A DNA stretch of 37,588 bases from a virus. A program made the position numbers and the translations under genes. How positions within the stretch are numbered: the first letter of the stretch is position 1; every line of letters starts with the position of its first letter. The notes under the pieces are model-generated. The model was given only the letters and a program-made list of their open reading frames with translations. It was not told the origin of the DNA and did not search any database. The stretch covers positions 1 through 37,588 of the IMG/VR virus record IMGVR_UViG_3300046323_000406; one strand, written 5' to 3'. Below are positions 779 to 35,027 of the stretch, piece after piece.

Positions 779-1005
779 GCCGTACTACTCGCGAGATATT
801 TCAACGACTTGAGTTTATCGCAGAGGACAGAATGAATGATCTTCGCTTCAATGCGAAAATTCATAATTTCAACCTACCAGAAGTGAGTAAACCCGTAGAT
901 AATGAGAAGGTAGAGCCGATTGATGTTTCTAAGTTAGAGAACGCAATGGCACAAGCAAGAGAGCGCAAGCTCAGGGAGAAGTCGGATGTCAGAGCTAATC
1001 ATTAA
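293..1005 (+). CDS. Tail assembly chaperone, -1 frameshift product (GT-like)
   Basis: If ribosomes slip back one base at 691-697 (A AAA AAA), reading continues open in the -1 frame to the TAA at 1003-1005. This gives about 135 residues of the short form plus 102 new ones. The new part begins KPDKPFDWGVV, contains AYGWTTEYTLSRTTREIF and ends in a charged helix (ARERKLREKSDVRANH). It has no start codon or ribosome site of its own and fills the otherwise empty gap before the tape measure, overlapping its start by 20 bases. This matches the T-domain extension of lambda GT, which recruits tail tube protein to the tape measure. The open frame is directly seen; the shift itself is inferred. Confidence 0.85.
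690..698 (+). other. Ribosomal -1 slippery site (nine A)
   Basis: The run is read GAA AAA AAA AGC in the zero frame. The heptamer A AAA AAA at 691-697 allows both tRNAs to re-pair after a one-base backward slip, after which AAG is read at 697-699. No upstream Shine-Dalgarno stimulator or downstream pseudoknot is obvious by eye. Confidence 0.8.
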
Positions 1006-3190
1006 GATAGGCGGTGAGGCAGACGATTTTAAAGAAGCACTTGCCGACGTTAAAAAGCAAACCGAATCACTTGAAGGTCAGCTTACAAGTATCGCAGCAG
1101 TCAGCGCTGTGGCTTTTGCAGCTCTTACAGCAGAGGTTTATCTAAGCGTTAAAGCTTTTGGCGTTGAGCAAAAAGCTATTGGTGAAGTGACTCTTGCACT
1201 TCAAAACCAAGGCATATTCACACAGGAATTATCTAAGCAGTATAGAGCTGCAGCAGAGGCTATCGAGAGAAAGACTGGCATTGATTCAGACGCAGTCAGC
1301 ACAGGACAGGCATTAGCCCAGGGTCTTATCGGTCAGACAAAGATTACCGATGAGCTCACACAGGCTGTCGTAGACCTTTCTGTAGCCAAGAAAATTGATT
1401 TAAGTTCTGCGTTTGAAATAGTTGGAAAAGGAATCGCTGGTAACACAGCTGCTTTGAAGAAGATGGGAATTGACCTAGACGAGAACGCTACGAAGGAAGA
1501 GCGTCTTGCTGCTGTTACCGAGAAGCTTAATCAGAAGTTTCAAGGGCAAGCAGAACAGGCTGCAAAAGCTGGTGGCGGTTTAATTCTTTTAGACTCTGCT
1601 GTAGGAAATCTTCAGAAGGCTATCGGAAGTCGTTTAGAGCCAGTTCTATCGAAGGTAGTTCAGTCGCTTACGAACTTTGTGAATGCTGTAACTGAGAACG
1701 GTCCACTTGTGGATTTTATTGTCTCAGTAGGAGCTGGTGCTTTGGCATTTACAGGTCTTGTCACAGCTGTAGCTGGTGGCGTGTTGGCGTTTGCGAAGGT
1801 AAGAGCTGCTATGATTGCAGCGAATATTGCCATCGGTGGCACCAGCATAGCTATCAAAGGCCTCATAGGCGCGACTGGTATCGGTATTCTCGTGATCGTT
1901 TTAGCTGAGCTCTACTTGAACTGGGAGAGTGTCTGGCCTCGTATGCAGGCTGTATTTGAGACGTTCGTAAATAACATTAAGCCTCTAGCCACTGGTTTAG
2001 GTAAGGTTCTTTTCGGTGCATTTTCCTATAACCTTGTCTCGTTAAAAGAAGGCATCACGGAGCTTAAGGATGCTTTTAAAGTTGGGTTCAAAGAGTACGG
2101 TGATCTCGTTGATAAAAAGATAGCCGAAGATAAAAAAGCGGATGAGACTCAGAACGCCGATAAAGCAGCAGCAGCAAACGAAGCAAATGCTATTGAGGTA
2201 GCTGCTTTAAATAGGTCTAGAGCACTTCGCGCTGCAGAAGCAGACCTTCTTCGCGCAATGGCGAACGATGAATCAAAAGCCATTATTGATTTGAAGAAGC
2301 AGGAAGTTGAGCTTTTAAAACAAATTGAAGATGACAAGAACGAAGCTATTCGTGGCTCTCTTATGCAGCGCCTTGAAGAAGTTCGCTTGCTTGAAGCTGA
2401 GGCTATCGAGATAGACCGTGAACAGAGACTGTTATTGCAGAGTGAAATTCTTGCAGAGAACGAAGAGTTCGCAGCTCTTACAGCAGAGCAAAAAGCTCTT
2501 TTCAATCTTCAGAGTACAACTGACCTAGCGACTCAGATTCAAACCGAGTCACAGTTAAGAATTGCAGCAGCAACAAAGACTGCCTCTGACCAGATTAAAT
2601 TCAACAATGAGTATCTTGAGAACCAAAGAAAGTTTGGCAAAGCATACGCAGATTTGCAGTTTGCACTTCGTCAAAAAGAAGTACAGGGATCTCTACAGGC
2701 AACGAACGAACTGGCTGCATTACAATCTTCAAGCAACGCTACGCTTTTCGGGATAGGTAAGGCTGCTGCGATCGCAAACGTATCTGTTAAAACAGCTGAG
2801 TCTGCAATGAACATTTATGCAGGTTTCTCAACGATTCCGATCGTAGGACCAGCGTTAGGTATAGCTGGTGCTGCTGCTGCTGTGGCCTTTGGTGGTGAGC
2901 AGATTAAGAAAATTGCAAGCACACCTAAACCAGTGAAAGCTGCTTCTGGTGGTTTGATAACCGGAGGTATTCCAGGTTTAGATAGCGTACCAGCAATGCT
3001 GATGCCAGGAGAGCTCGTAGTTCCTACAAGAAACTTCGAAGAAGTTGTGGGTGCTGTTTCTAGCAACAGGTCAGGTCAGCAGTCTGGAAGCATGGAAATT
3101 GTTTTAAAACTCCAAGATAATCTTATGGATTTTATTGAAACGAAACTTGTAGAGCGTCAGAACCTTAACTTGAGCATACAGGGAGTCTGA
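986..3190 (+). CDS. Tail tape measure protein
   Basis: A 734-residue protein that sets tail length and is threaded through the tail tube. The N-terminal part has amphipathic helices and the typical segment around residues 95-200 (TGIDSDAVSTGQALAQG, GKGIAGNTAALKKMGID). Two hydrophobic stretches lie at about residues 245-275 and 285-310, with long charged coiled coils at about 370-560. The C-terminus is glycine-rich and carries the family-like ASGGLITGG...SVPAMLMPGELVV. At roughly 1.5 angstrom per residue it predicts a tail near 110 nm. Its start overlaps the frameshifted chaperone, as is usual. This is among the surest calls in the window. Confidence 0.93.
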   Translation: MSELIIKIGGEADDFKEALADVKKQTESLEGQLTSIAAVSAVAFAALTAEVYLSVKAFGVEQKAIGEVTLALQNQGIFTQELSKQYRAAAEAIERKTGIDSDAVSTGQALAQGLIGQTKITDELTQAVVDLSVAKKIDLSSAFEIVGKGIAGNTAALKKMGIDLDENATKEERLAAVTEKLNQKFQGQAEQAAKAGGGLILLDSAVGNLQKAIGSRLEPVLSKVVQSLTNFVNAVTENGPLVDFIVSVGAGALAFTGLVTAVAGGVLAFAKVRAAMIAANIAIGGTSIAIKGLIGATGIGILVIVLAELYLNWESVWPRMQAVFETFVNNIKPLATGLGKVLFGAFSYNLVSLKEGITELKDAFKVGFKEYGDLVDKKIAEDKKADETQNADKAAAANEANAIEVAALNRSRALRAAEADLLRAMANDESKAIIDLKKQEVELLKQIEDDKNEAIRGSLMQRLEEVRLLEAEAIEIDREQRLLLQSEILAENEEFAALTAEQKALFNLQSTTDLATQIQTESQLRIAAATKTASDQIKFNNEYLENQRKFGKAYADLQFALRQKEVQGSLQATNELAALQSSSNATLFGIGKAAAIANVSVKTAESAMNIYAGFSTIPIVGPALGIAGAAAAVAFGGEQIKKIASTPKPVKAASGGLITGGIPGLDSVPAMLMPGELVVPTRNFEEVVGAVSSNRSGQQSGSMEIVLKLQDNLMDFIETKLVERQNLNLSIQGV

Positions 3191-3192
3191 TA

Positions 3193-3990
3193 ATGGCGCA
3201 GCCGATTGTATTTTTAAACAAAAACAAATTAGACATCAGCAATCCAAACGTGACTCTTACAGCTTCTGAAGGCCAGGACTATGTCGACCTAGTAAGAAAT
3301 AGAAGCAACACTTCCGCATGGGTAACGACGGATTCAGATGACGCTGACTTGACGAATATTGTTTTTGATTTCGGTGAGACGAGAACGCTGTCTGAGATCA
3401 TTCTAGTGAAGCACAATTTAAAGTCCTACACGATTCAGTATTGGAACGGTGCTACTTATGTTAATTTTTCAACTATCATTGCACCTACAGCTAATGCTTT
3501 AGATACTACGCATCACACATTTACACAGGTCGAGACCGATAAAATTAAGTTAGTCATCAACGGTACGATGGTAGCAGACGAAGATAAGTACATTTTCCAG
3601 GTGATAGCTACGACAAGAATTGGCCAGTTCACCGGATACCCTATTATTAGCGGTTTTGAGATCGATAGAAACCGAGTCATCAATCAAATGCTCTCTGGGA
3701 AGAAATCAATTATCGAAAACATTGGCGGGATTAGTTTCGATCTATCCGTGAAGTTCTGGAATATCGTATCCGATATTGGAATCGTTGAAAGCCTTTATGA
3801 TGCAAGTGAAGGTTTCATTGTTTGGGTTTGTGGTGGTCAGGAATCGCAGTTCTTTACTCCTGTCAAAGGCTACCGAGTAGAAGATATGATCCTTATGAAG
3901 TGTGCGAATGAATACAATCCAGACTTTGTTAAAGGATGCTATTTGAATGGTTTAGATTTAAAAATAAAACTTGCTGAGGTCGTCGACTGA
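3193..3990 (+). CDS. Distal tail protein with an N-terminal beta-sandwich region
   Basis: A 265-residue protein directly after the tape measure, the usual place for the distal tail (Dit-like) or minor tail protein. Residues about 50-100 (IVFDFGETRTLSEIILVKHN, then YTIQYWNGATYVNFS) resemble the discoidin/F5/8C galactose-binding-like fold. The C-terminal half (from GQFTGYPIISGFEI) looks like a separate domain. I infer a ring at the tail tip with possible sugar contact. It ends by overlapping the next gene at its TGATGG junction, suggesting coupled translation. The exact family is not recognised. Confidence 0.65.
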   Translation: MAQPIVFLNKNKLDISNPNVTLTASEGQDYVDLVRNRSNTSAWVTTDSDDADLTNIVFDFGETRTLSEIILVKHNLKSYTIQYWNGATYVNFSTIIAPTANALDTTHHTFTQVETDKIKLVINGTMVADEDKYIFQVIATTRIGQFTGYPIISGFEIDRNRVINQMLSGKKSIIENIGGISFDLSVKFWNIVSDIGIVESLYDASEGFIVWVCGGQESQFFTPVKGYRVEDMILMKCANEYNPDFVKGCYLNGLDLKIKLAEVVD

Positions 3991-5204
3991 TGGGGTTTTT
4001 TAAAGTCTATCTTGCACCATTTGACGACGAGGGTAATTACTTACCATTTGAAGACATTACAAAGTACGTCAACGCTGGTGCTCTAGGTGATATTCAGGTG
4101 AGCCTTGACGGTAGCGAGTACCAGGTAGGAGTGTTCACGTTCTCAAATTTAAACCTAAGACTTAATAACGTCGGTGGTCAGTTTTCAGACATAGACCAGT
4201 CTCAGTCATTCTTTAGGTTCCGTCGAGGTGATTCGAAGGTAAAGGTTACGTGGCAGTTCACTGACAAAGACGAGTGCGGTGTGGTGGATGTTGACGACGC
4301 ATGGCTTGCAGAAGAGATAGAAATTTATAAAGGATTAGTGAGTGATGAGAGCTTTGCTACAGACCTAAAGACTCAGCAGGTATCCGTCACTGTTCTTGGT
4401 TTTGAGTCCATTTTTGCTAAGACAATCGTTCCGTTTGATACGGTTAGTGCGAGTGATTTAGTTTCCACAACTATTTTCAACATTCTAAATCAGGCAGCTA
4501 TAACGAATCTTCTGACTTTAGACATCGCAAACATTACGCCGAACATTGACCAAGCGATAGATAGTATCAGCAGCCTTCAAAACAAGACTGTGAAGGAGGG
4601 TTTAGATACTCTTCTTACCTGTTCAAACTCTGTTCTTTATATTGTGAACGATACGATTTACGTAGCTCCTAGAACGCCTTCTGCAGCTGTTGAGGCTACC
4701 TTTTACGGTCAGGCTTCTGCTGCTGGTGCTGAGAGCATTGTGGATATCAACGACCTTCGCAACGGTGTGTCTCGCGTGTTCAATTTTATTACGTGGAAGA
4801 ATGCCACGAACTCTGTGACCTCTGCTGAGTCTGTGACTAGGTACGGAAATAAAAAGAAGGAGTTAGATTTCACAATCTTCACTAACTCCACGAAGATAAA
4901 CAATATTCTAAACTCAATTCTCGACGAGTTTGCTGACGCAAAACAAGAGTTCAATGTCGTTGTGGCTTTAAACTATTCGACTTTGGATCTGAAGCTTTTG
5001 GATCGAGTGATCATTGACTACCCTACGGTGTACGTGAACTCTGAAACTGGTCTACCTATTTGCGGAATCGCAGAGTGGGGTGACTTTGTTTTACCAGCAG
5101 CTCTATGGTCGCTTACGATCGATGACGACGCACCTTATAAAATCATCAATAAAAAAATCAACTGCAAAAACCAGACGATTACGTTTAGAGTGCGAAAGAT
5201 ATGA
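3990..5204 (+). CDS. Tail tip or baseplate hub protein
   Basis: A 404-residue protein with no signal peptide, rich in beta strands and asparagine. It begins GFFKVYLAPFDDEGNY. Position between the distal tail protein and the collar proteins suggests the hub or tail-associated structural protein that closes the tube. No peptidase or lysozyme motif is visible. It overlaps its upstream neighbour by one base and the next gene by four. Family assignment is by context. Confidence 0.6.
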   Translation: MGFFKVYLAPFDDEGNYLPFEDITKYVNAGALGDIQVSLDGSEYQVGVFTFSNLNLRLNNVGGQFSDIDQSQSFFRFRRGDSKVKVTWQFTDKDECGVVDVDDAWLAEEIEIYKGLVSDESFATDLKTQQVSVTVLGFESIFAKTIVPFDTVSASDLVSTTIFNILNQAAITNLLTLDIANITPNIDQAIDSISSLQNKTVKEGLDTLLTCSNSVLYIVNDTIYVAPRTPSAAVEATFYGQASAAGAESIVDINDLRNGVSRVFNFITWKNATNSVTSAESVTRYGNKKKELDFTIFTNSTKINNILNSILDEFADAKQEFNVVVALNYSTLDLKLLDRVIIDYPTVYVNSETGLPICGIAEWGDFVLPAALWSLTIDDDAPYKIINKKINCKNQTITFRVRKI

Positions 5205-5857
5205 GCGTAGATAATTTAATAAGTCGGGTGAACGGACAAGTCATAGACGAGACTTGGTTTGCAAGAATGAAGAGAGCTATCACTGGCGTCTTCGTTCCTC
5301 GAGACGTTACAACTCTCGACGCTTCGGACGAAGCTGGTAGCCTTGGTTCTTCGACGTACCGATTTAATAGAGCTCATATCACCAGCGGATATTTGAGCGT
5401 CGGAATGATGAAATACAAATACGTCTACACAAGTATTTCTCCAGTGCTTGAAGCTGGTTGGATGCTGTGTGACGGTCGAGTAGTTTCAGAAGCAAATTAC
5501 AATACTGAGCATGGTGCAAATACTTGGGCATCAGAGGTGGTCAGCTCACCTATCAACGGTCTAAGACTTCCTGACTTTAATAATAGGTACATGCGAGGTG
5601 TGAACGGTAGTACTCAGTCAGGCGCTTCGCCTATCACAAGCGTTGGTAATGGAAGCTTAAGTATTTCTCACGCTCACGGTACGAACTACACTACTGGAGC
5701 ACCAAACAACGCTGGTGTGTCTCGAGGTAGTATTGCTGGTGTAACAAACTTCTCTGACGGTACGCATTCGCACACGTTTACTTTAACGACGCAAGACCCA
5801 GGCGGTGGACTTGATCCTCAGTACGTTCTTCTTAAAGTTTACATGAGGGTTATCTAA
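5201..5857 (+). CDS. Tail collar-domain protein, copy 1
   Basis: A 218-residue protein. Residues about 1-40 hold a short module (SRVNGQVIDETWFARMKRAI) shared with the next three genes. Residues about 85-150 carry the phage tail collar hallmark, GWMLCDGRVVSEANY followed by LRLPDFNNRYMRG. The C-terminal part has the histidine pairs HAHG and HSH seen in metal-binding short-fibre domains such as T4 gp12. The likely role is a receptor-binding or tail-tip fibre. It overlaps its neighbours by 4 and 1 bases and is the first of three tandem paralogues. Confidence 0.8.
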   Translation: MSVDNLISRVNGQVIDETWFARMKRAITGVFVPRDVTTLDASDEAGSLGSSTYRFNRAHITSGYLSVGMMKYKYVYTSISPVLEAGWMLCDGRVVSEANYNTEHGANTWASEVVSSPINGLRLPDFNNRYMRGVNGSTQSGASPITSVGNGSLSISHAHGTNYTTGAPNNAGVSRGSIAGVTNFSDGTHSHTFTLTTQDPGGGLDPQYVLLKVYMRVI

Positions 5858-6507
5858 TGGGAATTGAGACAATACCAGATAGAGCAAGTGGCCAAACTCC
5901 TCAACAGAGCTGGATTAATAATTTCAGAGATGTTCTGAGTGGAAACTTTATTGCTAGGTACTTAACTGGTGCGGTTCGTGCGAACTACGGACGTTTAGGA
6001 ACTCAGACGTATCGTTGGAAACGGCACCACGTCTTCACAGGTGACATGGGTGTAGGCGATATCATGCCTTGGTACGATTACAATGGTGGGTATGATTTGC
6101 CTCAAGGTTGGATGCTGTGCAATGGAGTGATAATTAACGAGGCTAACTACGACGCTCAACATACAACAGGAGACTGGGATAACTACGTAGTGTCTACGGT
6201 TTTAAACGGTATTTATTTACCAAGTATGGGCTCTAATTTCCCTCGTGGAACAACGGCAGCAATGCAGTCTGGTACTTCACCAATAACAAATGGTGGTATT
6301 TCAACTTTAAATCTAAGCCACACTCACGGATCACCAAGAACTACTTCAGGGCCATCGCCTACTTTTATTAACAGAACTTCTGCTGTGGATAGACTTGCTT
6401 ACAACGCTACACACACACATACTGTGACGATTCCTTCTGACCTTTCTTCTGTTCAAAATATTGAACCTGAACATTTACTGATAAAGTTTATTATGAGGGT
6501 CGTATGA
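5857..6507 (+). CDS. Tail collar-domain protein, copy 2
   Basis: A 216-residue paralogue of the genes on both sides. The N-terminal module reads DRASGQTPQQSWINNFRDVL, the collar core GWMLCNGVIINEANY followed by YLPSMGSNFPRG, and the C-terminus SHTHG and THTHTV histidine clusters. The THTHT segment is written by a CA dinucleotide run at 6409-6419. Sequence divergence from copy 1 is large outside the hallmark residues, so the duplication is old or under diversifying pressure. A fibre or adhesin at the tail tip is the likely role. Confidence 0.8.
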   Translation: MGIETIPDRASGQTPQQSWINNFRDVLSGNFIARYLTGAVRANYGRLGTQTYRWKRHHVFTGDMGVGDIMPWYDYNGGYDLPQGWMLCNGVIINEANYDAQHTTGDWDNYVVSTVLNGIYLPSMGSNFPRGTTAAMQSGTSPITNGGISTLNLSHTHGSPRTTSGPSPTFINRTSAVDRLAYNATHTHTVTIPSDLSSVQNIEPEHLLIKFIMRVV

Positions 6508-7178
6508 CGCTTTTAAATTTAACTGAAGTAGTCGCGATAAAAACAGATCAGTCAGCCTTTAACAATGTTCAAGATGCAATCACTGGCGATGTGTACCCAC
6601 GTACAGCAGGACTCGCTACAGACAAAGCTGGTGATTTAGGTTCTGCGACTTATCCTTGGTTGGCTGCAAACGTTGTGTCTGGATACATTCCAGGCGGTGC
6701 TACGATTCCTTGGTACGACTTCAATGGTCTTTTAGATATCCCACAAGGGTACATGCTCTGCAATGGCGATGTTGTTAGTCGATCAACTTATAACATTCAG
6801 CACAGAACAGGTGTTTCAGACACCACAGACTACTGGGCACTGTACATTGGGAGCTCACCTTTAGAAGGTCTTCATTTGCCATCGATGGCTTTGAGGTATT
6901 TTAAAGGTACAGTTTCTTCAACACAGGCTGGTAGCTCAGCTTTAACGTATGCTGGTAACATAGGAACAGTGGTTAACCTTCAACACAATCACGGCAGCGT
7001 TGTCACGACGAACGCTGTGGCTACAGTGAACGAAAGTAATGCTGGTCTTTTAACTTACATAGAAGCGACAAGTGGAACACACACACACAATGCTACAATC
7101 ACAAACGACCTAAGCACAGCTCAGGACATCACGCCGCTATCTATCGACGTGAAATACCTGATGAGAATTTTGGAGTGA
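6504..7178 (+). CDS. Tail collar-domain protein, copy 3
   Basis: A 224-residue third copy. The N-terminal module is the most diverged (AIKTDQSAFNNVQDAITGD). The collar core is GYMLCNGDVVSRSTY followed by HLPSMALRYFKG, and the histidine clusters are HNHG and THTHN. A CA run at 7077-7089 encodes the second cluster. It overlaps copy 2 by four bases (ATGA), so the three are probably translated in coupled fashion. A homo- or hetero-trimeric tip is possible but cannot be judged from sequence. Confidence 0.8.
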   Translation: MTLLNLTEVVAIKTDQSAFNNVQDAITGDVYPRTAGLATDKAGDLGSATYPWLAANVVSGYIPGGATIPWYDFNGLLDIPQGYMLCNGDVVSRSTYNIQHRTGVSDTTDYWALYIGSSPLEGLHLPSMALRYFKGTVSSTQAGSSALTYAGNIGTVVNLQHNHGSVVTTNAVATVNESNAGLLTYIEATSGTHTHNATITNDLSTAQDITPLSIDVKYLMRILE

Positions 7179-7182
7179 TGCA

Positions 7183-7653
7183 ATGAGCTTTAGCGATATT
7201 CCTTTAAGAACTAACGGTCAGAAGATTCTATACTCGTGGTTCAATGATATTCGAACTGCTGGTCTAGGATCCGGTGGGTGGACTAAATACACCGTGGCTT
7301 ATACTGATCTTTCTGCTGCTGCTCTTACAAATAACATCACACTTTTAACGCTTCCTATTTTAGGTAAAATTGAAGGTTTAGTTATAAAACACAGCGCTTC
7401 TTTTACTGGTGGAGCTTTGAGTGCTTATAAAATCGACGTTGGTATTGTAGGAGAGCTTGATAGATACCTAAGCCAGTTCGATGTGTTTCAAGCTGCTGGT
7501 GCTGCAGTGTTTAATTCAGTCGATTTAAATGAGATACCTAGTTTTACAGCTACAACTGCTGTTAAGATTCAAGCGACTTCTGTCGGAGCAAATTTAAGTG
7601 CTGCGACTGCTGGTAGTTTAGATATTTGGGTTAAGACATCAACACTGCCTTAA
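7183..7653 (+). CDS. Tail-tip protein sharing the collar genes' N-terminal module
   Basis: A 156-residue protein. Residues about 5-27 (DIPLRTNGQKILYSWFNDIR) match the N-terminal module of the three collar proteins, but the collar domain is replaced by an unrelated beta-rich region with many alanine and threonine residues. This suggests that the N-terminal segment is a docking module for the tail tip and the rest is an interchangeable head. It lacks any signal peptide. Its exact function is unknown. Confidence 0.6.
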   Translation: MSFSDIPLRTNGQKILYSWFNDIRTAGLGSGGWTKYTVAYTDLSAAALTNNITLLTLPILGKIEGLVIKHSASFTGGALSAYKIDVGIVGELDRYLSQFDVFQAAGAAVFNSVDLNEIPSFTATTAVKIQATSVGANLSAATAGSLDIWVKTSTLP

Positions 7654-7669
7654 TGGAGGAATGTTCTAC

Positions 7670-9757
7670 GTGAAACAATTTTTAAAAGCGTTACTACTCT
7701 TAACAGTTTTTCAAGCTTCTGCTGGTGAAATAAACACAGACGCTCTCAGACTCAAGCCTGGTACTTTGCCAACTGCTGCAGCTAACGGGACTTTGAGAGT
7801 CGACAGCTCAGACGATAAGTTAAAGAAGTACTCAACTACTTCTAGCTCTTGGGCACAGATCTCTGGATCTGGTGGTGGTTCTGGTAGGAATTATATTGAT
7901 GCAAATCCAGACGCAGAATCAGGTACGACTGGTTGGGTTACTTACGATGACGGTTCAGCTGCTGCACCTGTAGACGGAACTGGTGGCAGTCCTATTACGA
8001 CGACTTTTACTAGAAGCACATCGAGCCCACTTCGAGGTGTAGGAAGTTTTCTTTTAACTACCACCGCTGCAGATTTGAGAGGTGAGGGAGTCGGTTATGC
8101 TTTCACTATTGACGCAGCAGACAAGGCTAAAGTTTTAAGTATTAGTTTTGATTACTCTACAGACGTAACTACGGTAACTGGTGATTTCGGCGTTTATATT
8201 TATGACTTAACAAACGCTCAAATTATTCAACCAGCAGGGTATCAGATTCAAGGTAGTGTGAGTGGCACTCAGTACAAACACATTGCTAGTTTTCAAACTG
8301 CTTCAAACAGCACAAGTTATAGATTGATTATTCACAGAGCAGTCGTTACAGCTCAGGCTGTAAATTTAAAACTTGATACGGTAGTTGTTGGACCAGAGGC
8401 TCGTTTATATGGAGCTCCTGTCACGGATTGGCTTAGTTATACTCCTACTTATACAAATTTAACCGTTGGAAACGGTGTTAGCAGCGCAAAATGGCGTCGT
8501 GTAGGAGATTCGATGGAAATTGAAGGCTCATTCACAATGGGTACTACGTCTAGTATGGGTACAACGCCAACTATGTCTTTACCTTCTGGGTACTCTATTG
8601 ATACTTCTAAGCTAGGATTTAACTCAACTGAAAATACTCTTGGTGTAGGTAATGCTGTTAAAAGTGGAGCAAACAACTACCCATTATATATTTCCATATC
8701 AAACTCAACTTCTGTATTTGCTAGACCATTATACGATAGAGCTGCTGGTGTTGGCTTCATTGATACAGGAACAGTTATTAGTTCAGTCCAGCCTTTTATT
8801 TGGGCAACTAACGATGTAATGGTTTGGAGTATAAAAGTTCCCATCACCGGCTGGTCCTCATCAGTCCAGATGTCTAACGATACGGATACGAGGGTGGTTG
8901 CTGCTAGGTATTCTAACACAGTGTCTATTCCTGATAACTCACAGACTCAGTTAACCACTCTATCAACTGCCTACGATACTCATGGCGCGGTTGTTACTGG
9001 AACTGGATTTGTCGCTCCTGTTCCTGGTTATTATGATTTTGATATTTTCACTGAGTGGCAAGCTACTGTTAACTGGAACGCCACAGGTAAATATGCGTCA
9101 GTACGATATCAGGTAAACTCTGGCGGCGTTAGTAAGCTCGTAGAAATTCCAGTAAACAACAACTCGGCTGCTTTCTCTCTTACTCTAAACGGAAAGAGTG
9201 CTGTTTATTTGAACGCTGGAGATGTTCTTAAGTTTTATCTGTATCAAAACAGCGGCGGCAGCATGGCTCATGCTACTAACATTACTGTCAGTAGAATCTC
9301 CGGCCCCTCCGCAATTGCCGCTAGTGAGACGGTGGCTATGAGAAGCGGCACCTCTAACGCACAAGCAATTGCATCAGGAGGCGGTTCTGTAATAACAACA
9401 TGGACTAATCAGTACGATTCTCATGGAGCTTTTAATGCTACCACTGGAGTATATACGGTACCTGTGTCTGGTAAATACAGAATCGCGTGTCATCTTTTAC
9501 CTAATTCTACTTCTTTTACATCTGGATCTAGTCGATACGCGTATCTTCAGGTGTCTGGAACAAAATCATTTGTCGTTGGTATGCAAACAGTTTGGGCTAC
9601 ACTAACTACATTTTTAACTCTAGGTGGAAGTGGGACAAATACATACAATGCTGGTGATACGATCAGCGTAACAGTCCAAAACCAGACAGGATCTACATTG
9701 ACTTTAAATGCTAGTGTTTTTGAAAACTGGATTAGTATAGAAAGAGTAGGTAATTAA
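7670..9757 (+). CDS. Signal-peptide-bearing fibre/adhesin with C1q-like domains
   Basis: A 695-residue protein. The GTG at 7670 is chosen because GGAGGA at 7655-7660 lies nine bases upstream; an ATG at 7661 would abut that site. The N-terminus is a classic signal peptide (VKQFLKALLLLTVF, cleavage likely after QASA). Next come a short DALRLKPGTLPTAAANG segment often seen in fibres, a carbohydrate-binding-like region (from NYIDANPDAESGTTGW) and two C1q/TNF-type jelly rolls near residues 420-545 and 560-695, each with a VPVSGKY- or APVPGYY-type strand and an NAGD turn. Phage tail fibres normally have no signal peptide. Either it is exported to the host surface or it is a host adhesin captured by the phage. 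Confidence 0.7.
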   Translation: MKQFLKALLLLTVFQASAGEINTDALRLKPGTLPTAAANGTLRVDSSDDKLKKYSTTSSSWAQISGSGGGSGRNYIDANPDAESGTTGWVTYDDGSAAAPVDGTGGSPITTTFTRSTSSPLRGVGSFLLTTTAADLRGEGVGYAFTIDAADKAKVLSISFDYSTDVTTVTGDFGVYIYDLTNAQIIQPAGYQIQGSVSGTQYKHIASFQTASNSTSYRLIIHRAVVTAQAVNLKLDTVVVGPEARLYGAPVTDWLSYTPTYTNLTVGNGVSSAKWRRVGDSMEIEGSFTMGTTSSMGTTPTMSLPSGYSIDTSKLGFNSTENTLGVGNAVKSGANNYPLYISISNSTSVFARPLYDRAAGVGFIDTGTVISSVQPFIWATNDVMVWSIKVPITGWSSSVQMSNDTDTRVVAARYSNTVSIPDNSQTQLTTLSTAYDTHGAVVTGTGFVAPVPGYYDFDIFTEWQATVNWNATGKYASVRYQVNSGGVSKLVEIPVNNNSAAFSLTLNGKSAVYLNAGDVLKFYLYQNSGGSMAHATNITVSRISGPSAIAASETVAMRSGTSNAQAIASGGGSVITTWTNQYDSHGAFNATTGVYTVPVSGKYRIACHLLPNSTSFTSGSSRYAYLQVSGTKSFVVGMQTVWATLTTFLTLGGSGTNTYNAGDTISVTVQNQTGSTLTLNASVFENWISIERVGN

Positions 9758-9758
9758 A

Positions 9759-9893
9759 ATGAGATATTTTTATGCAATGTGTATCGCTTTTACTTTAGGT
9801 TTTATTCTAAGTGGATGCTCATCTTTGAAACTTCAATACTGCCCAAAAGTAGTTAACGAAGAAGAGAAGCTGTACAAATGCAAGAAACCTTAG
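9759..9893 (+). CDS. Small lipoprotein (44 residues)
   Basis: The reading frame gives MRYFYAMCIAFTLGFILSGC, a signal peptide ending in the lipobox LSGC, then a 24-residue mature part with two more cysteines and a lysine-rich tail. It follows the fibre gene closely and overlaps the next gene by 16 bases. A membrane-anchored lipoprotein is a safe reading; a role in lysis (outer-membrane spanin) or superinfection exclusion is only a guess. It was too short for standard detection but has a clean start. Confidence 0.65.
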   Translation: MRYFYAMCIAFTLGFILSGCSSLKLQYCPKVVNEEEKLYKCKKP

Positions 9894-10633
9894 AACAGAT
9901 CCGTGAAGATTTTTTCACTTATTGGGTAGACTCTCACGGTCTTGGTCTTCTTGAGCGTCAAGGAACTACAAACGACAACGGTATATTGTTTCTTGTTTAC
10001 TTTCTGATCCTATGTCGGAAGCTCGACAAAGAAGGAAAGTATTACCACGAAGACAAGCAGCGATTTATTGCAGCTGTCACACTTCTCATCGTTGTTCGTG
10101 ATGGTGGATATGTAAAAGGCCTATTCAATAGAAGGCCAAATGATCCTACTCCAGAGGCTCACGACAACTACACCGCTATCACAACGGGAGCTAGAATCTT
10201 TGACTGCCGTGAAATCATAGACGACATATGTGACTACGCAGATAGAAACGGTGGGATATTTGACAACGACGGTAGTGGGTTTTCGTTCAATCAAATGCGT
10301 CAGGGATCAGAAATTGCCTACTATAGAGTCCTGGCTAATCGTATACCAAGCGCTTTAGACCTCATCTGGCTTGCTGGTGGTTTAATATTTAACGCTTTGT
10401 TTGGTAACTACTCTTCTAAGAACTTGGGGCTATTAAGAACGATCGGACTAAACTACTCTCTACCTAAATCTAAACTTCCAGACGTTTATGCTTTGCCTTT
10501 ATTGTTATCTGTGATGCTGTGGGACTTAATTATTTTATCTAAAGGTGGTATTAAGAAGAACTTCGAAAACTACTTCTTGCCTACGCATCCGATCAGAAGA
10601 CTTATTTTACTTATCGAAAAGGAAAACAAATGA
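9878..10633 (+). CDS. Unknown protein with a hydrophobic C-terminal half
   Basis: A 251-residue protein that I do not recognise. The N-terminal 40 residues include a hydrophobic stretch (GILFLVYFLILCRKL). The middle is polar and acidic with FDCREIIDDICDYADRNGG. The second half has hydrophobic segments (SALDLIWLAGGLIFNALF and ALPLLLSVMLWDLIIL) that could be membrane helices or buried core. It sits between a lipoprotein gene and the peptidoglycan enzyme and overlaps both by a few bases, so it is probably part of the lysis or late operon. Confidence 0.6.
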   Translation: MQETLEQIREDFFTYWVDSHGLGLLERQGTTNDNGILFLVYFLILCRKLDKEGKYYHEDKQRFIAAVTLLIVVRDGGYVKGLFNRRPNDPTPEAHDNYTAITTGARIFDCREIIDDICDYADRNGGIFDNDGSGFSFNQMRQGSEIAYYRVLANRIPSALDLIWLAGGLIFNALFGNYSSKNLGLLRTIGLNYSLPKSKLPDVYALPLLLSVMLWDLIILSKGGIKKNFENYFLPTHPIRRLILLIEKENK

Positions 10634-11205
10634 TACCAGCCAAAAAACCACAGCGAGGCTTTGATTGGATAAGTCAGATTCTTCCACAGGTGAAACTTAA
10701 GAAGACGGATAAGATTCTTCTCATTGGTTTCAGAGGGTATTTTTTAAACTCTATGGGTGTTCTTGAAAAGAACGATCGAGGTATCTACGACGACGCTTTA
10801 GACTGGGTTGAGCTTGAGACTGGCATCGTTCACCAGTTTAATGGAAACGTCGATCCTAGTGCTTACCGAAAAGGTAAAGGCACAGGTTCTTCTAAAGGAA
10901 TGGCTTCTCTTAAAAACGGCACATGGCGTTATAAGATCGGTATGCATAACGGATCGGTTCCACACATGGCGTACCGTCAAGCTGCTGACGTTACGGTGAT
11001 TCGAGACGGCAATCCGAACTATGAGGAGACTGGGCAGTTTGGAATTAACATTCACCGAGGTGGTCGCACTGGGACTTCTTCTTTAGGATGTCAGACTGTT
11101 CCTCCATCTCAATGGGATGATTTTAACGCTACTGGAACACGTCTTTTAAAAGCTGCTAAGCAGCAAAATGATTTCCCATATCACTTGTGTGAGATGCAAG
11201 GCTGA
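10630..11205 (+). CDS. L,D-transpeptidase (YkuD)-like peptidoglycan enzyme, candidate endolysin
   Basis: A 191-residue protein whose C-terminal third carries the YkuD-type catalytic signature: His142 in NIHRGG, then Ser151-x-Gly153-Cys154 in SSLGCQTVP. In this family the cysteine is the nucleophile and the enzyme acts on the peptide stems of peptidoglycan. No signal peptide is present, so export would need a holin, and a holin-like gene follows. I infer a lysis role from the neighbours; relatives can make rather than cut cross-links, and the substrate cannot be told from sequence. It overlaps its upstream neighbour by four bases. Confidence 0.7.
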   Translation: MIPAKKPQRGFDWISQILPQVKLKKTDKILLIGFRGYFLNSMGVLEKNDRGIYDDALDWVELETGIVHQFNGNVDPSAYRKGKGTGSSKGMASLKNGTWRYKIGMHNGSVPHMAYRQAADVTVIRDGNPNYEETGQFGINIHRGGRTGTSSLGCQTVPPSQWDDFNATGTRLLKAAKQQNDFPYHLCEMQG

Positions 11206-12432: not shown

Positions 12433-12629
12433 GTTCTCCTGAGATCGATCCTTTTACTGGGCAGTTAGTATTTTATCAAAAATGCTGTATCAACACTTCT
12501 ACACTGCTTGGTTCTTTAATTCCAAGTGGTGAGTCTATGACAGTTCAAGTGGGGTCAAATATTCAGATAACAAACTATCTCGATCTTCAAGGTGACTTGA
12601 TTGTCGAGGGAATATTCGGGGTTCAATAA
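12429..12629 (+). CDS. Short fibre-linked protein
   Basis: A 66-residue protein. The start is GTG at 12429, overlapping the previous stop (GTGA); an in-frame ATG 27 bases earlier is less likely. The last 25 residues, NIQITNYLDLQGDLIVEGIF, have the repeating pattern of a short beta-helix or trimeric fibre shaft. It overlaps the large fibre by one base. The role as a fibre adaptor is an inference. Confidence 0.5.
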   Translation: MSSPEIDPFTGQLVFYQKCCINTSTLLGSLIPSGESMTVQVGSNIQITNYLDLQGDLIVEGIFGVQ

Positions 12630-15412
12630 TGGCTAAGATTGATTTGACAAACGGCGCGGCTCCTGCGACTCCAGCGGCTGGTAAGGTTTCGATCTATACT
12701 AAAGCGGATAAGAAGATTTATATTAAGGACGACGCTGGACTCGAGACTCCTTTAGTGGATGCAGGACTGGCTTCGATCACAGCTTTAACTGGAGATGTAA
12801 CTGCTACGGGACCTGGTGCTGTCCCAGCTACGCTTGCAACGGTAAACGCTGGGGTAGGTTCATTTACTAATGCAAGTGTTACGGTAAACGCTAAGGGACT
12901 TGTTACGGCTGCATCAAGTGGCGCGGCTCCCATTACGGATCACACTGGACTAACTAGCATCGGTATTAATACTCACCTGCAAATTGATACGCACATCGGC
13001 TCTACCTCTAACCCCCACTCTGTAACTAAAACACAAGTAGGGTTAGGGAACGTCGATAATACTTCTGATGTAAACAAGCCTGTCTCTACTGCGACACAGA
13101 CAGCTCTTGATGGCAAAGTTGATGAGAATGCTCCTATCGCTGGAGCGACAAAAACCAAGATTACCTACGACGCTAAAGGTTTAGTTACGTCTGGAGCTGA
13201 TGCTGCCATTGCTGACATCGCAGGACTTGCTACAGCTATCGCAGGACTTGTTCCATACACAGGCGCAACGGCCGATGTGGACATTGGTAGTAATAAATAT
13301 ATCGGCCTAACGGGGACATTTCAATTTTTAGAAAATAGCTTTGGCGATACTGTATTTGAATTAGACTCAAGACAAGCTTTTGATTCTACTTTTGTGTTGT
13401 CAGCGGATTTACAAGCAAGATCATTATACCGAGCTGATGGGGTTGAGGCTTTTAACTGGACAAACGGCCCGTATATAAGACTTGACCCCACTCCTAACAC
13501 TTCAAGTATTTTCTTTGAGGGCGGCACCACACCGTACTTTGAATATTCCCCAGTTTTAGACAGAATGACAACTGGCAACTACACAACTTTTAGATTTAAT
13601 AATCCACAAGTTAGTTTTGACACTGTTATAGACTCATTGGATTTAAAAGCGATCGAAGCGAATACTTCCTTTCGTTGGCTTTACGATTTTGGCGGCTCAT
13701 ACCCAAGCGTAGATTATGGTAACTATACACTTTTAAATATCGGGATTTCTAACACAGTACCCATGCTTGATTGGGGCTTGGCGGCGGGCGGTGGCGTTAA
13801 GATCTACCAAGGCCAATACAACGTATGCGTAGGAGATTTTACAAACCTTCAGCTCTTAGATTTAAATGGTAATTTAATTGTTGATTGGTTAAATTATTAC
13901 CTTTACGACAATTTTAACTCAGTCTCGGTAGACTTTAATTTTCACACGCTTCAATACTTAGGTGACATCAAATTAAATTGGGAGTTGGGACTTCTTCAAA
14001 CTGGCGGCTCAACTCAGCTTGACTGGATTGGGGGCACTCTTCAAAATGCTGGGCAAACGGTTCTTAGCTGGGCCTCAAACGCGCTAATTGATACTACCTC
14101 GGTACATGCTTTACGCTGGGAAACCAGAAGACTTGTAAGCTCTCTTAACATTGAGAATCTAAATTGGGAATCAACCTATGTTCAGATCAAAGATCGAATG
14201 GGTATTTCCAATACTAACATAAGCCCGACAAATGCTTTGCAAATTGATTTAGGAAACGCTACGGCTTCCGCTCTTAAATTCACCGCAGGAGCAACGACGG
14301 GGCAAACGGTTAGTGATGGTTTTGATGTAGGTATTTCTGCTACCGGAGTAGGAGAGATTCGGCAACGAGAAAATCTAAGCTTAGAGCTTTACACAAACAA
14401 CACGCTTAGAGCGCAATGGTCGGGATCTGGTAACTTGTTTTTAGATGGCTCAACACAAGCGCGCGGTGGCGCGGGATCTGCGGCAGTTCCTTTCTGGGGG
14501 TTCACATCAAGTTCAGATTGTGGAATGTTCAGAGGGACTGGTTCAACTGTAGGACTTTCTACAACAGGGACGCAGCGATTATTAATCTCGTCTGCTGGGT
14601 CGTGGGATTTTACAAACAGCACGCAGTTTCTAACTCCCACGGGATCAGTTGGAACTCCGATGTATTCGTTCGCTGGTGATTCAAATACCGGGATGTACAA
14701 CGTCGGAGCTGACCAAATCGGTTTCGCTGGTGGCGGCGTAGTAAGATTTCAAATCTTCACGGCAGGAGTTGAGAGTGCAGCTCAAGTTCGTGGCGCGGCT
14801 GGTAGCGCAGGGACTCCTACTTTTGTACCGAGTAACGATACCAACACAGGTATGTTCGGCGCAGGCGCTGACATACTTGGCTTCTCAACAGCAGGAACAG
14901 AGAGACTACGAATAGACGCGGCAGGAAAGACTACTATCTTCCAAGGAACAGCTCTTCGTGGGGCGATGGCGACGGTGTACTCGCAGATAAACTCCGTCGG
15001 TAACGTAGGAGTTGGCGAAGATACTCTACATACTGTAACGACTGCATCGGGAGCTTTCGCAGCAAATGGTGATTCTTTTGAAGTTGTCTGCTCTGGGACA
15101 TTTGCAGCCAATGCAAACAACAAGCGAGTCAGATTAAAGTTTGGCGCTATCACATTGTTTGACACTACGGCACTGGCTTTTAATACAGGCGACTGGGAAA
15201 TAAAAGCACGCATCTTTAGAACTACCACCACCACTGGTAGGTCGATTGTGACTTGGACTTGCAGCAACGCAACGCTAACTACCACTTGCGATTATCAGGC
15301 TTGGGCTTTTAACTTTTTAACAACCAACGCGCTATTCGTGACAGGCGAAGCAACGAATGATAACGATATTGTGCAAGAATTAATGCAAGTATTTTGGGTC
15401 CCAGTAGCATAG
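12629..15412 (+). CDS. Large mosaic tail fibre
   Basis: A 927-residue protein. N-terminus: an alanine- and threonine-rich shaft with a tail-fibre repeat (VTKTQVGLGNVDNTSDVNKP, residues about 130-155). Middle, roughly residues 220-530: repeated short blocks of the LNWE/LDWI/LSWA/LRWE type. Then three copies of a GSAGTPTF...DTNTGMFxxGAD...GFSTAGTERLRI motif (about 610-780, the first and second degenerate). The C-terminal 150 residues (from NVGVGEDTLHTV) form a probable jelly-roll tip. No signal peptide is visible. It is the best candidate for the long receptor-binding fibre. Blocks of GGC- and GCG-rich codons in the middle suggest acquisition from another source. Confidence 0.8.
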   Translation: MAKIDLTNGAAPATPAAGKVSIYTKADKKIYIKDDAGLETPLVDAGLASITALTGDVTATGPGAVPATLATVNAGVGSFTNASVTVNAKGLVTAASSGAAPITDHTGLTSIGINTHLQIDTHIGSTSNPHSVTKTQVGLGNVDNTSDVNKPVSTATQTALDGKVDENAPIAGATKTKITYDAKGLVTSGADAAIADIAGLATAIAGLVPYTGATADVDIGSNKYIGLTGTFQFLENSFGDTVFELDSRQAFDSTFVLSADLQARSLYRADGVEAFNWTNGPYIRLDPTPNTSSIFFEGGTTPYFEYSPVLDRMTTGNYTTFRFNNPQVSFDTVIDSLDLKAIEANTSFRWLYDFGGSYPSVDYGNYTLLNIGISNTVPMLDWGLAAGGGVKIYQGQYNVCVGDFTNLQLLDLNGNLIVDWLNYYLYDNFNSVSVDFNFHTLQYLGDIKLNWELGLLQTGGSTQLDWIGGTLQNAGQTVLSWASNALIDTTSVHALRWETRRLVSSLNIENLNWESTYVQIKDRMGISNTNISPTNALQIDLGNATASALKFTAGATTGQTVSDGFDVGISATGVGEIRQRENLSLELYTNNTLRAQWSGSGNLFLDGSTQARGGAGSAAVPFWGFTSSSDCGMFRGTGSTVGLSTTGTQRLLISSAGSWDFTNSTQFLTPTGSVGTPMYSFAGDSNTGMYNVGADQIGFAGGGVVRFQIFTAGVESAAQVRGAAGSAGTPTFVPSNDTNTGMFGAGADILGFSTAGTERLRIDAAGKTTIFQGTALRGAMATVYSQINSVGNVGVGEDTLHTVTTASGAFAANGDSFEVVCSGTFAANANNKRVRLKFGAITLFDTTALAFNTGDWEIKARIFRTTTTTGRSIVTWTCSNATLTTTCDYQAWAFNFLTTNALFVTGEATNDNDIVQELMQVFWVPVA

Positions 15413-19447: not shown

Positions 19448-20125
19448 ATGTCATCACCCCAACCCTCACTGTTTTCAAAGTCCACCGAAAGGTGTACTAC
19501 AAAATCTACTCCGACCAATACGGAGTCAACCTCGCTACTGGAACCCAGCCACAGTAGCGTTGCCGTAATGGAAGTAAATACTCCCGACACTGCGAGTCTG
19601 GAACGCAGTTCGGGAGCTCTTCGTTCAATCACGATGCAGCTTCACGAAATAGAACTAGAACTCATCGAAAGCGGTGGAGTGCTAACCCCATACCTTGAAG
19701 GCAGGCTATCCTCTGCAACACTGGCTAAAGAGAAGAAAATTGACGCCTATGTAGCTATTTGGAAACGCGCTGAGTCGATCGCTATCGAGTACGGTGAACG
19801 AGCTGACAAGCTTACCGCGGTTAAAAAGGCAGCTACCACTCTCGTTAAAACGCTAAAGGATAATCTTAAAGAAGCCTCAAAGATCCTCGGCATTGTTGAA
19901 CTTGAAGGTGAAAATAATAGAATCAAGATTTCAGACTCGGCACCAGAGCTGCAGATTATCGATATGAATTTAGTACCACCTCAGTACACGAGGGAAGTCA
20001 CGACGCTCGAGGTTGATAAAGAGGCTCTATCAAAAGCATTAGCTAGAGGCGAGAAGGTGCCAGGTATTCACTGGGAACCAAAAAAACGAATCAACATTTA
20101 TCCAGTGAAGGGGAAATTAAAATGA
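19448..20125 (+). CDS. Siphovirus Gp157-family protein
   Basis: A 225-residue protein. AGGAG nine bases upstream supports ATG 19448. The first 60 residues are polar and low-complexity. The rest shows the Gp157 pattern: helical N-terminal part (MQLHEIELELIESGG), a central coiled coil (ERADKLTAVKKAATTLVKTL) and the C-terminal NRIKISDSAPELQIID followed by VPPQYTREV. In other phages this family sits beside single-strand annealing or recombination genes, as here, where it overlaps the ERF gene by four bases. Its biochemical role is not settled. Confidence 0.75.
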   Translation: MSSPQPSLFSKSTERCTTKSTPTNTESTSLLEPSHSSVAVMEVNTPDTASLERSSGALRSITMQLHEIELELIESGGVLTPYLEGRLSSATLAKEKKIDAYVAIWKRAESIAIEYGERADKLTAVKKAATTLVKTLKDNLKEASKILGIVELEGENNRIKISDSAPELQIIDMNLVPPQYTREVTTLEVDKEALSKALARGEKVPGIHWEPKKRINIYPVKGKLK

Positions 20126-25690: not shown

Positions 25691-26103
25691 GACAAACGAG
25701 TATTGAAACATACCACCAAATCAAAGAAGAAGGTTTGCTCAGCAAGCTAAGGCTTGCTGTTTATGAGGTGCTTTATCAACACGGACCACTAAGCACAGGT
25801 GAGATATTCAAAGAACACATGCAGTCCTTTCAGCAGAGCTGTATCACGCCACGGATCGCAGAGCTTGTTACGCGTGGAGTTGTGGAGAAGGTAGGAGAAA
25901 GGGATTGTAGAACCACAGGAAGAAACTTCTGCATTTGGGATGTAACGAGCAGCCTACCTAAACAGCCAGTTAGAAAAGCAGACAACGAAGCCACTCAAAT
26001 CATCAGAGACATTCGAAACAACGTCAGCGCAGCTTTTATGGGTAATGATCTAGCCAGGCGAATAGACAAATATCTAACGAACAAATCGAAAAGCTTAAGG
26101 TGA
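25687..26103 (+). CDS. Winged-helix DNA-binding protein
   Basis: A 138-residue protein. Residues about 15-80 read LRLAVYEVLYQHGPLSTGEI, then a recognition helix (ITPRIAELVTRGVVEKVGER) and a wing ending GRNFCIWDV. This matches the MarR-like winged helix of phage regulators or replication accessory proteins. The C-terminus is polar and basic. A role in early gene control or origin binding is inferred. Confidence 0.65.
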   Translation: MRQTSIETYHQIKEEGLLSKLRLAVYEVLYQHGPLSTGEIFKEHMQSFQQSCITPRIAELVTRGVVEKVGERDCRTTGRNFCIWDVTSSLPKQPVRKADNEATQIIRDIRNNVSAAFMGNDLARRIDKYLTNKSKSLR

Positions 26104-26108
26104 AAAAT

Positions 26109-26198
26109 ATGAACAAAATTAATTTTAACTATCAATACGAGCTACTGTTTTGGGCAGTTCTTACGATTCTAATTATGACGATTGTATGGCTATCTTAA
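26109..26198 (+). CDS. Tiny membrane peptide (29 residues)
   Basis: The frame gives MNKINFNYQYELLFWAVLTI then LIMTIVWLS, a single hydrophobic segment. It overlaps the HNH gene start by 13 bases. It could be real or chance; the clean start and overlap favour a gene slightly. Confidence 0.35.
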   Translation: MNKINFNYQYELLFWAVLTILIMTIVWLS

Positions 26199-26500
26199 AA
26201 CCAACGAGAACTAAAGACCCAGAGTTTTTAAAGGCCATAAGAGAGCTACCTTGTTTAGCTTGTGGAAGAGCGCCGAAGTCAGAAGCGCACCACATAAAAA
26301 CTAAAGGTGACTTTGGTGGTGATGACTTTTGGAATGTCATACCTCTCTGCACTGCTACGTGTCATGTGTTCGGCGCTAAGAGTTGGCACAAAATAGGGTG
26401 GAAAGACTTCTGCATTCTGAACCCTCATGTTTGGAAACATCTCAACTCTCTAGGTTGGGAGGACTGCTTTGGAAGACTCCACAACATCAATGACGTTTGA
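26186..26500 (+). CDS. HNH nuclease, recombination type
   Basis: A 104-residue protein. ATG 26186 (MAILKPTRTKDPEFLKAIRE) is preferred over the upstream frame start. The core is CLACGRAPKSEAHHIKTKGD, then DDFWNVIPLCTATCH, then the HKIGWKDF tail: zinc-binding cysteines, the paired HH and the final histidine of phage HNH nucleases. It lies immediately before RusA, as in many siphoviruses, where such enzymes help process recombination or packaging DNA. Confidence 0.78.
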   Translation: MAILKPTRTKDPEFLKAIRELPCLACGRAPKSEAHHIKTKGDFGGDDFWNVIPLCTATCHVFGAKSWHKIGWKDFCILNPHVWKHLNSLGWEDCFGRLHNINDV

Positions 26501-26855: not shown

Positions 26856-26864
26856 TCAATCAAG

Positions 26865-26937: not shown

Positions 26938-26946
26938 CTAAGGAGC

Positions 26947-34364: not shown

Positions 34365-35027
34365 ATGAGATACCTAATTTCAATTCTGATGCTTTTTACA
34401 GTTGCGGTTAAAGCTTCTCCTGTAAAGCGTCAGTTTCAAGACATGAAATACCCTACACAAGCAGCGATCGAGCGTCAGGTTTGGACTGATCCTTTACTTG
34501 CTGTTGCTACTCGATTGAGCACAGCTGCTTCTGGTGCAACATCTGCAGCGATTGCTACTTTGTCGTCGTTCTCTGCTCAACCTGATCAACCTCGCAACAT
34601 TGTCATCACTCCTGCTGGGACTACGACTGACATTGAGGCTTGTGTGATTGTGGTTAACGGCACGAACTTCTTCGGAGCTGCTATCAGCGAAAACTTCACG
34701 TTCGCAGCAAACGACACAGCAGCTCAGACTGGCGCTAAAGCGTTTCAGTCTGTAACCTCTGTAGTTTTCCCTGCTAACTGTGAGTCCGGTGCATTCGCTG
34801 CTACATGGAACATTGGGACAGGCGCTAAGCTTGGTCTTAAGCGTTGCATGAATCAAGCTGGTGATATGTTCCACGGTGTTGTGGCTGGTGTTAAAGAAGG
34901 CACAGCTCCTACAATCGTTGCAGATGCAGATGAGATTGAGAAGAACACTGCTTCGTTCAACACTGCACTAGATGGAAGCAAGGACGTTGACTTATTCTTC
35001 GTTCAGAACTTCCGTTGTTTCCCTTAA
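34365..35027 (+). CDS. Capsid-associated-family protein with a signal peptide
   Basis: A 220-residue protein. The first 18 residues (MRYLISILMLFTVAVKAS) form a signal peptide with a likely cleavage after KAS. The mature part (VWTDPLLAVATRLS, then PRNIVITPAGTTTDIEACVI) resembles a family of beta-sandwich proteins often encoded beside siphovirus capsid genes. Export is unusual for a virion protein. It follows the terminator, so expression may be reduced or have its own promoter. Confidence 0.65.
   Translation: MRYLISILMLFTVAVKASPVKRQFQDMKYPTQAAIERQVWTDPLLAVATRLSTAASGATSAAIATLSSFSAQPDQPRNIVITPAGTTTDIEACVIVVNGTNFFGAAISENFTFAANDTAAQTGAKAFQSVTSVVFPANCESGAFAATWNIGTGAKLGLKRCMNQAGDMFHGVVAGVKEGTAPTIVADADEIEKNTASFNTALDGSKDVDLFFVQNFRCFP

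What the first reader, a model, noticed from the sequence alone, without database searches (positions are those of the whole stretch)
7655..9757. Tail-fibre-like protein carrying a cleavable signal peptide
GGAGGA places the start at GTG 7670, giving a textbook signal peptide before carbohydrate-binding and double C1q-like domains. Virion fibres are assembled in the cytoplasm and are not normally exported. In Bdellovibrio, exported fibre-like adhesins built from phage-fibre parts (mosaic adhesive trimer proteins) are known. This gene could be a phage-carried surface adhesin, a captured host gene, or the source of such host genes.
Basis: partly seen in the sequence, partly recalled or inferred. 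Interest (0 to 1): 0.75.

Follow-up and report, generated by a model that had tools for sequence, protein, structure and literature searches.

The report
Phage tail fibre with export signal
This virus, probably of predatory Bdellovibrio-type bacteria, makes a tail-fibre-like binding protein that carries a signal for export out of the cell's interior; unrelated phages, including a cultured one that kills Bdellovibrio, have done the same thing, which is odd because tailed phages are thought to be built entirely inside the cell.

Summary
GTG 7670, nine bases after GGAGGA, opens a 695-aa protein: an 18-residue signal peptide (MKQFLKALLLLTVFQASA|GE), a CBM-like domain, a middle beta domain and two C1q domains. 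The window is a near-complete 37.6-kb phage, probably of a Bdellovibrionota host: its capsid protein is 44-47% identical to prophages there, at most 30% elsewhere. The protein is a phage fibre, not a captured host gene. Most of 62 scored relatives (51) lack an export signal; 9 besides the window carry a credible one. In several phages the signal peptide sits exactly where a cytosolic homologue has its first methionine; in the clearest case the docking end stays as conserved as in cytosolic orthologues. Exported forms carry about twice as many cysteines. Lytic Bdellovibrio phage phi1422 has the same order: fibre without signal (gp67), fibre with signal (gp68), then a small gene. The capsid-module protein at 34365-35027 also carries a signal peptide. 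Export is well supported by inference; its purpose is not. I favour attachment of the exported distal fibre to virions at lysis; a free receptor-masking fibre is the main rival. It is not a MAT member: the domain that follows the signal peptide in MATs is absent. No bench evidence exists.

The parts
7655..7660 (+). Shine-Dalgarno GGAGGA, 9-base spacing to GTG 7670
   Evidence: sequence
7670..9757 (+). exported tail-fibre / receptor-binding protein, 695 aa
7670..7723 (+). Sec signal peptide MKQFLKALLLLTVFQASA, predicted SPase I cut after residue 18
   Evidence: inspection; permissive rule; signal peptide also in the syntenic orthologue of G004
7724..7891 (+). mature N-terminal segment (residues 19-74), low model confidence; too short for the MAT N-terminal domain
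7892..8398 (+). CBM4/CBM22-like beta domain (residues 75-243)
8417..8863 (+). middle beta domain with RRVGDSxEI motif (residues 250-398)
8900..9301 (+). first C1q-like domain (residues 411-544)
9335..9754 (+). second C1q-like domain (residues 556-695)
7183..7653 (+). upstream small tail protein without signal peptide; its orthologue in phage G004 has one directly before the same N-terminal motif
9759..9893 (+). 44-aa lipoprotein directly downstream (small o-spanin-like), start of the lysis region
   Evidence: sequence; 51-aa counterpart in G004
34365..35027 (+). second protein of the virion modules with a signal peptide: directly after the capsid gene, MRYLISILMLFTVAVKA|S, four cysteines

Best explanation
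It is the distal receptor-binding fibre of a tailed phage of a Bdellovibrionota host. It is made with a Sec signal peptide, sent into the periplasm late in infection, cleaved and trimerised there through its C1q domains (relatives also gaining disulfides), and most likely added to virions when lysis mixes periplasm and cytoplasm. The proximal, virion-borne tail proteins stay cytosolic. Shown by sequence: a credible signal peptide, fibre ancestry, position, recurrence in other phages, exact fusion points in other phages, a conserved docking end in the clearest case, cysteine enrichment. Inferred: translocation, cleavage, trimerisation, attachment to the virion at lysis.
For: Recurrence: signal peptides on C1q/CBM fibres in nine other relatives, in two Bdellovibrionota prophages (L145, L149) and in lytic Bdellovibrio phage phi1422 gp68. 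Exact fusion: mature residue 1 of the L030 fibre matches residue 2 of cytosolic orthologues L037/L023 (54-57% identity), and mature residue 1 of the L010 445-aa fibre matches residue 2 of L027 (49%), with L140 also close (55%). Docking end: the first 50 mature residues of the exported L030 fibre are 56-72% identical to cytosolic orthologues, whose own pairs share 58-62%, while the remainder is 27-43%. A set: three consecutive fibre genes of G005 carry signal peptides where orthologous loci L023, L037 and L042 carry none. Position: the exported fibre mostly follows a tail gene without signal peptide and precedes lysis-type genes; I saw no other fibre in G004 and G003, and only the preceding adaptor-type fibre in MW202898 and phi1422. 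Export chemistry: cysteines 0.78 against 0.37 per 100 residues, p = 0.012; in the capsid-module protein C161/C218 are kept and C92/C139 come and go together, while the homologue without signal peptide in Microcystis phage Mwe-Yong1 has no cysteine. Sister phages of phi1422 on other hosts (56, PLPE, ZF40) have no signal peptide on the fibre genes checked.
Against: No precedent for periplasmic addition of a fibre to a tailed phage was found. The window phage also has a second, cytosolic fibre (12629-15412). On one 104-kb contig an exported and a tethered fibre are 87% identical over about 600 residues, which fits a soluble competitor as well. A conserved docking end could also mean the signal peptide was gained recently. 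The window fibre itself has a single cysteine. The upstream tail gene has a signal peptide in G004 but not in the window, so the proximal/distal rule is not strict. That the N-terminal end docks to the virion is inferred from position. Signal peptides were called by simple rules.
Confidence: 0.48

Rival explanations
1. The exported fibre is not a virion part. It is released as a free trimer that covers receptors on the dying cell, its debris or neighbours, so that progeny are not wasted or rivals are kept out.
For: Export without any visible anchor; a nearly identical tethered twin on the same contig (87% over about 600 aa); the window phage keeps separate cytosolic tail and fibre proteins.
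Against: In G004, G003, MW202898 and phi1422 the exported protein is the best or only receptor-binding candidate. The virion-side end stays conserved after export, and whole sets of fibre proteins are exported together.
Confidence: 0.27
2. A surface adhesin of the infected or lysogenic Bdellovibrionota cell (MAT-like), altering what the predator sticks to.
For: Host group uses exported fibre-like adhesins with TNF/C1q-type tips (PMC10769870); PblB, a phage tail protein with a predicted signal peptide, acts as an adhesin in Streptococcus pneumoniae (PMC4508584).
Against: No MAT N-terminal domain; placed next to lysis genes; same arrangement in lytic phi1422; no integrase noticed among the proteins scanned; no lipobox or outer-membrane anchor.
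Confidence: 0.13
3. The hydrophobic N-terminus is not used for secretion: the protein folds in the cytoplasm or uses the segment as a membrane-active or structural piece of the virion.
For: Other tailed-phage fibres are cytosolic; the window h-region is only 8 residues and a strict rule misses it.
Against: Divergent signal peptides with the same n/h/c layout recur at exact fusion points; cysteine enrichment and the co-varying cysteine pair point to an oxidising compartment.
Confidence: 0.08
4. A captured host gene passing through a phage.
For: Bdellovibrionota have exported fibre-like proteins (PMC10769870).
Against: Relatives are overwhelmingly viral, the stronger Bdellovibrionota genome hits inspected lie among phage-type genes, and a cytosolic phage fibre shares the same tip as an exported one (87% identity).
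Confidence: 0.04

Closest known systems
Bdellovibrio phage phi1422 gp67/gp68 (JQ177062), lytic phage of B. bacteriovorus
   Same: Fibre without signal peptide (gp67), then a fibre-like protein with signal peptide (gp68, 8 cysteines), then the small gene gp69. gp68 is 33% identical, from residue 1, to the signal-peptide fibre of Bdellovibrionota prophage L145, itself a hit of the window fibre's profile; gp76 is 45% identical to window 10630-11205.
   Different: Myovirus; gp68 annotated only as hypothetical protein. I found no report of its signal peptide in the paper passages read.
MW202898.1 'caprin-2 domain protein' (uncultured podovirus, Manatee Spring)
   Same: 37% identical over 80% of the protein; signal peptide MFNKILIAIVFIITCLNA; follows an adaptor-type fibre without signal peptide.
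   Different: Podovirus, host unknown; annotated start lies upstream of the likely one.
Mosaic adhesive trimer (MAT) proteins of Bdellovibrio
   Same: Signal peptide, fibre-like, TNF/C1q-type tips in some members.
   Different: Chromosomal, displayed on the predator, and with a ~130-aa beta domain after the signal peptide that is absent here.
PblB (phage SM1-like prophages of streptococci)
   Same: Phage tail-module protein with a galactose-binding-like domain and, in S. pneumoniae NTUH-P15, a predicted signal peptide (PMC4508584).
   Different: Different fold and Gram-positive host; S. mitis PblB is described as released by phage-induced lysis.
Ordinary C1q-type receptor-binding tail proteins of phages
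   Same: Same C1q and CBM-like domains; BFVD hits to minor tail proteins and PDB hit to phage TM4 gp23.
   Different: No signal peptide on most family members examined here.

Membership tests
Tailed-phage fibre / receptor-binding protein | homology and fold shared with phage fibre proteins | tested here: met
Tailed-phage fibre / receptor-binding protein | gene in the tail-fibre position of the structural module | tested here: met
   synteny with G004
Tailed-phage fibre / receptor-binding protein | homotrimer | not testable with these tools
   C1q/TNF domains usually trimerise (general knowledge); no multimer prediction available
Tailed-phage fibre / receptor-binding protein | component of the virion | not testable with these tools
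   needs proteomics
Tailed-phage fibre / receptor-binding protein | made without an export signal (usual, not strictly defining) | tested here: not met
Mosaic adhesive trimer (MAT) superfamily | N-terminal signal peptide | tested here: met
Mosaic adhesive trimer (MAT) superfamily | conserved beta-rich domain of about 130 aa directly after the signal peptide | tested here: not met
   only about 55 residues, mostly low confidence, before the CBM-like domain; definition from PMC10769870; MAT sequences themselves were not aligned
Mosaic adhesive trimer (MAT) superfamily | fibre tip with S74, TNF/C1q or similar adhesive fold | tested here: met
   two C1q domains
Mosaic adhesive trimer (MAT) superfamily | displayed on the predator surface | not testable with these tools
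   needs localisation
Lysogenic-conversion adhesin | temperate phage with lysogeny genes | tested here: inconclusive
   no integrase noticed among the proteins scanned; one weak repressor match at 27162-27404; not every ORF was scanned; phi1422 is recorded as lytic

The most novel reading that the evidence does not exclude
Some tailed phages, including those of Bdellovibrio-type predators, assemble virions in two compartments: heads and proximal tails in the cytoplasm, distal fibres (and a capsid-module protein) exported, in many cases disulfide-bonded in the periplasm, and fitted on at lysis, perhaps helped by the confined space of the prey ghost.
Probability: 0.4. Interest if true: 0.88.

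Novelty: new variant of a known kind. Interest (0 to 1): 0.72.

Why it matters
Signal peptides have been used to separate bacterial surface proteins from phage structural proteins: a survey of phage diversity-generating retroelement targets took their absence as support for phage origin (PMC6199706). Here phage fibre genes carry them repeatedly. Either some tailed phages build part of the virion outside the cytoplasm, or they release free binding tips to manage receptors. I found no report of either, and cultured lytic phage phi1422 makes the question directly testable. It also offers a route by which exported fibre-like adhesins of the MAT sort could arise from phage fibres by gaining a signal peptide.

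Tried and rejected
Wrong start codon: rejected, both in-frame starts include the signal peptide and relatives agree. Captured host gene: one genome-contig scan gave 4 weak hits. MAT membership: failed on the N-terminal domain. Feature unique to Bdellovibrionota phages: not supported; possible signal-peptide fusions also appear in two prophage regions of the comparison phylum (L152; L153, a phrog_240 head protein), the host of G005 could not be told, and several Bdellovibrionota prophages lack them. Single-sequence search of the window protein against PDB gave nothing useful; the profile was needed. Literature searches for exported fibres or Bdellovibrio phage fibres with signal peptides returned no precedent beyond PblB. 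An accession guessed for phage phi1402 was wrong; phi1402 was not examined.

Full report
What is there. The window is a 37,588-bp virus record. Its last structural gene (36695-37567) continues into the first (293-778) as in the syntenic phage G004, so it is probably a near-complete, circularly permuted genome; its two ends share only 8 bases (seen in the end sequences printed). ORF 7670-9757 has GGAGGA at 7655-7660 and GTG at nine-base spacing. The N-terminus reads MKQFLKALLLLTVFQASA|GE. A profile from 28 relatives matches C1q and adiponectin chains in the PDB twice along the protein. The AlphaFold model (mean pLDDT 72.5, pTM 0.40) gives a disordered stretch after the signal helix, a CBM4/22-like domain, a middle beta domain and two C1q/TNF domains. 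The arrangement of domains to each other is not reliable; the single domains are better supported.

Is the signal peptide more than chance? I wrote two rules because no predictor was at hand. The strict one misses the window protein (its core is 8 residues, not 9); the permissive one flags it. Relatives were gathered by similarity of the fibre tip, not by N-terminus. Of 62 scored relatives, 10 (strict) or 11 (permissive) are flagged, against 5 or 8 of 272 other long phage ORFs (Fisher p = 4e-5 and 9e-5). I judge one flagged relative, L078, a false positive, which leaves nine credible ones besides the window, L059 the least clear. Of the background hits, two to three are lipoproteins, two are fibre genes next to an exported fibre (L010, L030) and one is the window's own capsid-module protein.

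Host. The capsid protein finds two Bdellovibrionota genomes at 44-47% identity (283-294 bits); one of them, G263, carries a syntenic prophage. The same search in 349 genomes of another large phylum (that of an Algicola MAG, taken as Pseudomonadota) gives 35 hits, the best 74 bits and at most 30%; GenBank phages reach 24-29%. The protein at 10630-11205 is 45% identical over 136 residues to gp76 of Bdellovibrio phage phi1422. A Bdellovibrionota host is therefore likely.

Recurrence. Besides the window, signal-peptide fibres of this family occur in the syntenic phage G004 (L025), podovirus MW202898 (L004), L009/L034, L010, L030, L059, L064, L068 and L076, in Bdellovibrionota prophages L145 and L149 and in lytic phi1422 gp68. 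They mostly follow a tail or adaptor gene without signal peptide and stand before lysis-type genes. Virion types differ (the record title calls MW202898 a podovirus; phi1422 is a myovirus; the window phage has a tape-measure gene, so a long tail). In the phi1422 morphogroup, phages 56, PLPE and ZF40 on other hosts have no signal peptide on the fibre genes I checked, including PLPE gp63, which its record marks as virion-confirmed by mass spectrometry.

How the signal peptides got there. In L030 (phage G005) the mature fibre starts at the residue that follows Met1 in orthologues L037 and L023, with L042 within two residues; in L010 the 445-aa fibre does the same relative to L027 and closely to L140; in G004 the small protein upstream of the fibre has a signal peptide just before the N-terminal motif of its window orthologue, which has none. 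G005 has signal peptides on three consecutive fibre genes, where L023, L037 and L042 have the same gene order without any. After fusion, the first 50 residues of the L030 fibre remain 56-72% identical to the cytosolic orthologues, as close as these are to each other (58-62%), while the tips have fallen to 27-43%. The virion-side end thus still seems to matter, unless the fusion is recent.

Signs of an oxidising compartment. Signal-peptide fibres have 0.78 cysteines per 100 residues against 0.37 (Mann-Whitney p = 0.012; ten against 61 sequences, so modest; the window fibre itself has one). The capsid-module protein with signal peptide (window 34365, G004, L135) keeps C161 and C218 in all three; C92 and C139 are both present in two and both absent in the third; the homologue of Microcystis phage Mwe-Yong1 has no signal peptide and no cysteine. 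Three sequences are few, but the pattern is what disulfides would give.

Mechanism. Steps supported by sequence: fibre ancestry, tail/lysis position, export signal, retained docking end in the clearest case. Inferred: transport, cleavage, trimerisation in the periplasm, docking to virions when lysis opens the inner membrane. Bdellovibrio phages mature inside a predator that itself sits in a closed prey ghost, which could keep exported fibres and virions together after lysis; this is my speculation. The main rival, a free fibre that blocks receptors, is favoured by the pair of 87% identical exported and tethered fibres on one contig and cannot be excluded. A surface adhesin is possible but less likely given lytic phi1422 and the absence of an anchor and of the MAT domain.

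Limits. No bench data; home-made signal-peptide rules; no multimer modelling; fate of the protein after export unknown; not every window ORF was scanned for lysogeny genes. Confidence that the protein really carries a working export signal is about 0.85; that it ends up on virions about 0.45.

Noticed in passing
window 34365-35027: A protein directly after the major capsid gene has a signal peptide and four cysteines; orthologues in G004 and L135 also have signal peptides, while a homologue in Microcystis phage Mwe-Yong1 has neither signal peptide nor cysteine. An exported capsid-module protein is as odd as the exported fibre.
   Followed up: partly
L084:12087-14027 and L085:15349-18198 (same 104.5-kb contig): One virus contig encodes two fibres 87% identical over about 600 residues, one with a signal peptide and one with an ordinary fibre N-terminus.
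   Followed up: partly
L086 (G005), genes at 3471-4310, 3072-3446, 949-3063: Three consecutive tail-fibre genes all carry signal peptides; orthologous loci L023, L037 and L042 carry none.
   Followed up: yes
L153:10755-11267 and L152:1013-2794: In two prophage regions of the comparison phylum (taken as Pseudomonadota) a phrog_240 head protein and a collagen-like fibre also look fused to signal peptides, so the habit may be wider.
   Followed up: partly
L157:15870-16382 (phi1422 gp75): Second signal-peptide protein with fibre-like sequence in the cultured Bdellovibrio phage.
   Followed up: no
L133: An 11.5-kb contig from another sample is 99.9% identical to window 26094-37588: the phage recurs between samples.
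   Followed up: no
window 5201-7653: Four consecutive small tail proteins, three with weak tail-collar matches, begin with similar N-terminal stretches of about 30 residues (by eye); the fibre that follows has a signal peptide instead.
   Followed up: partly
window 19448-20125: A Mu Gam-like end-protection protein (phrog_253) in a phage in which no transposase was noticed among the proteins scanned.
   Followed up: no
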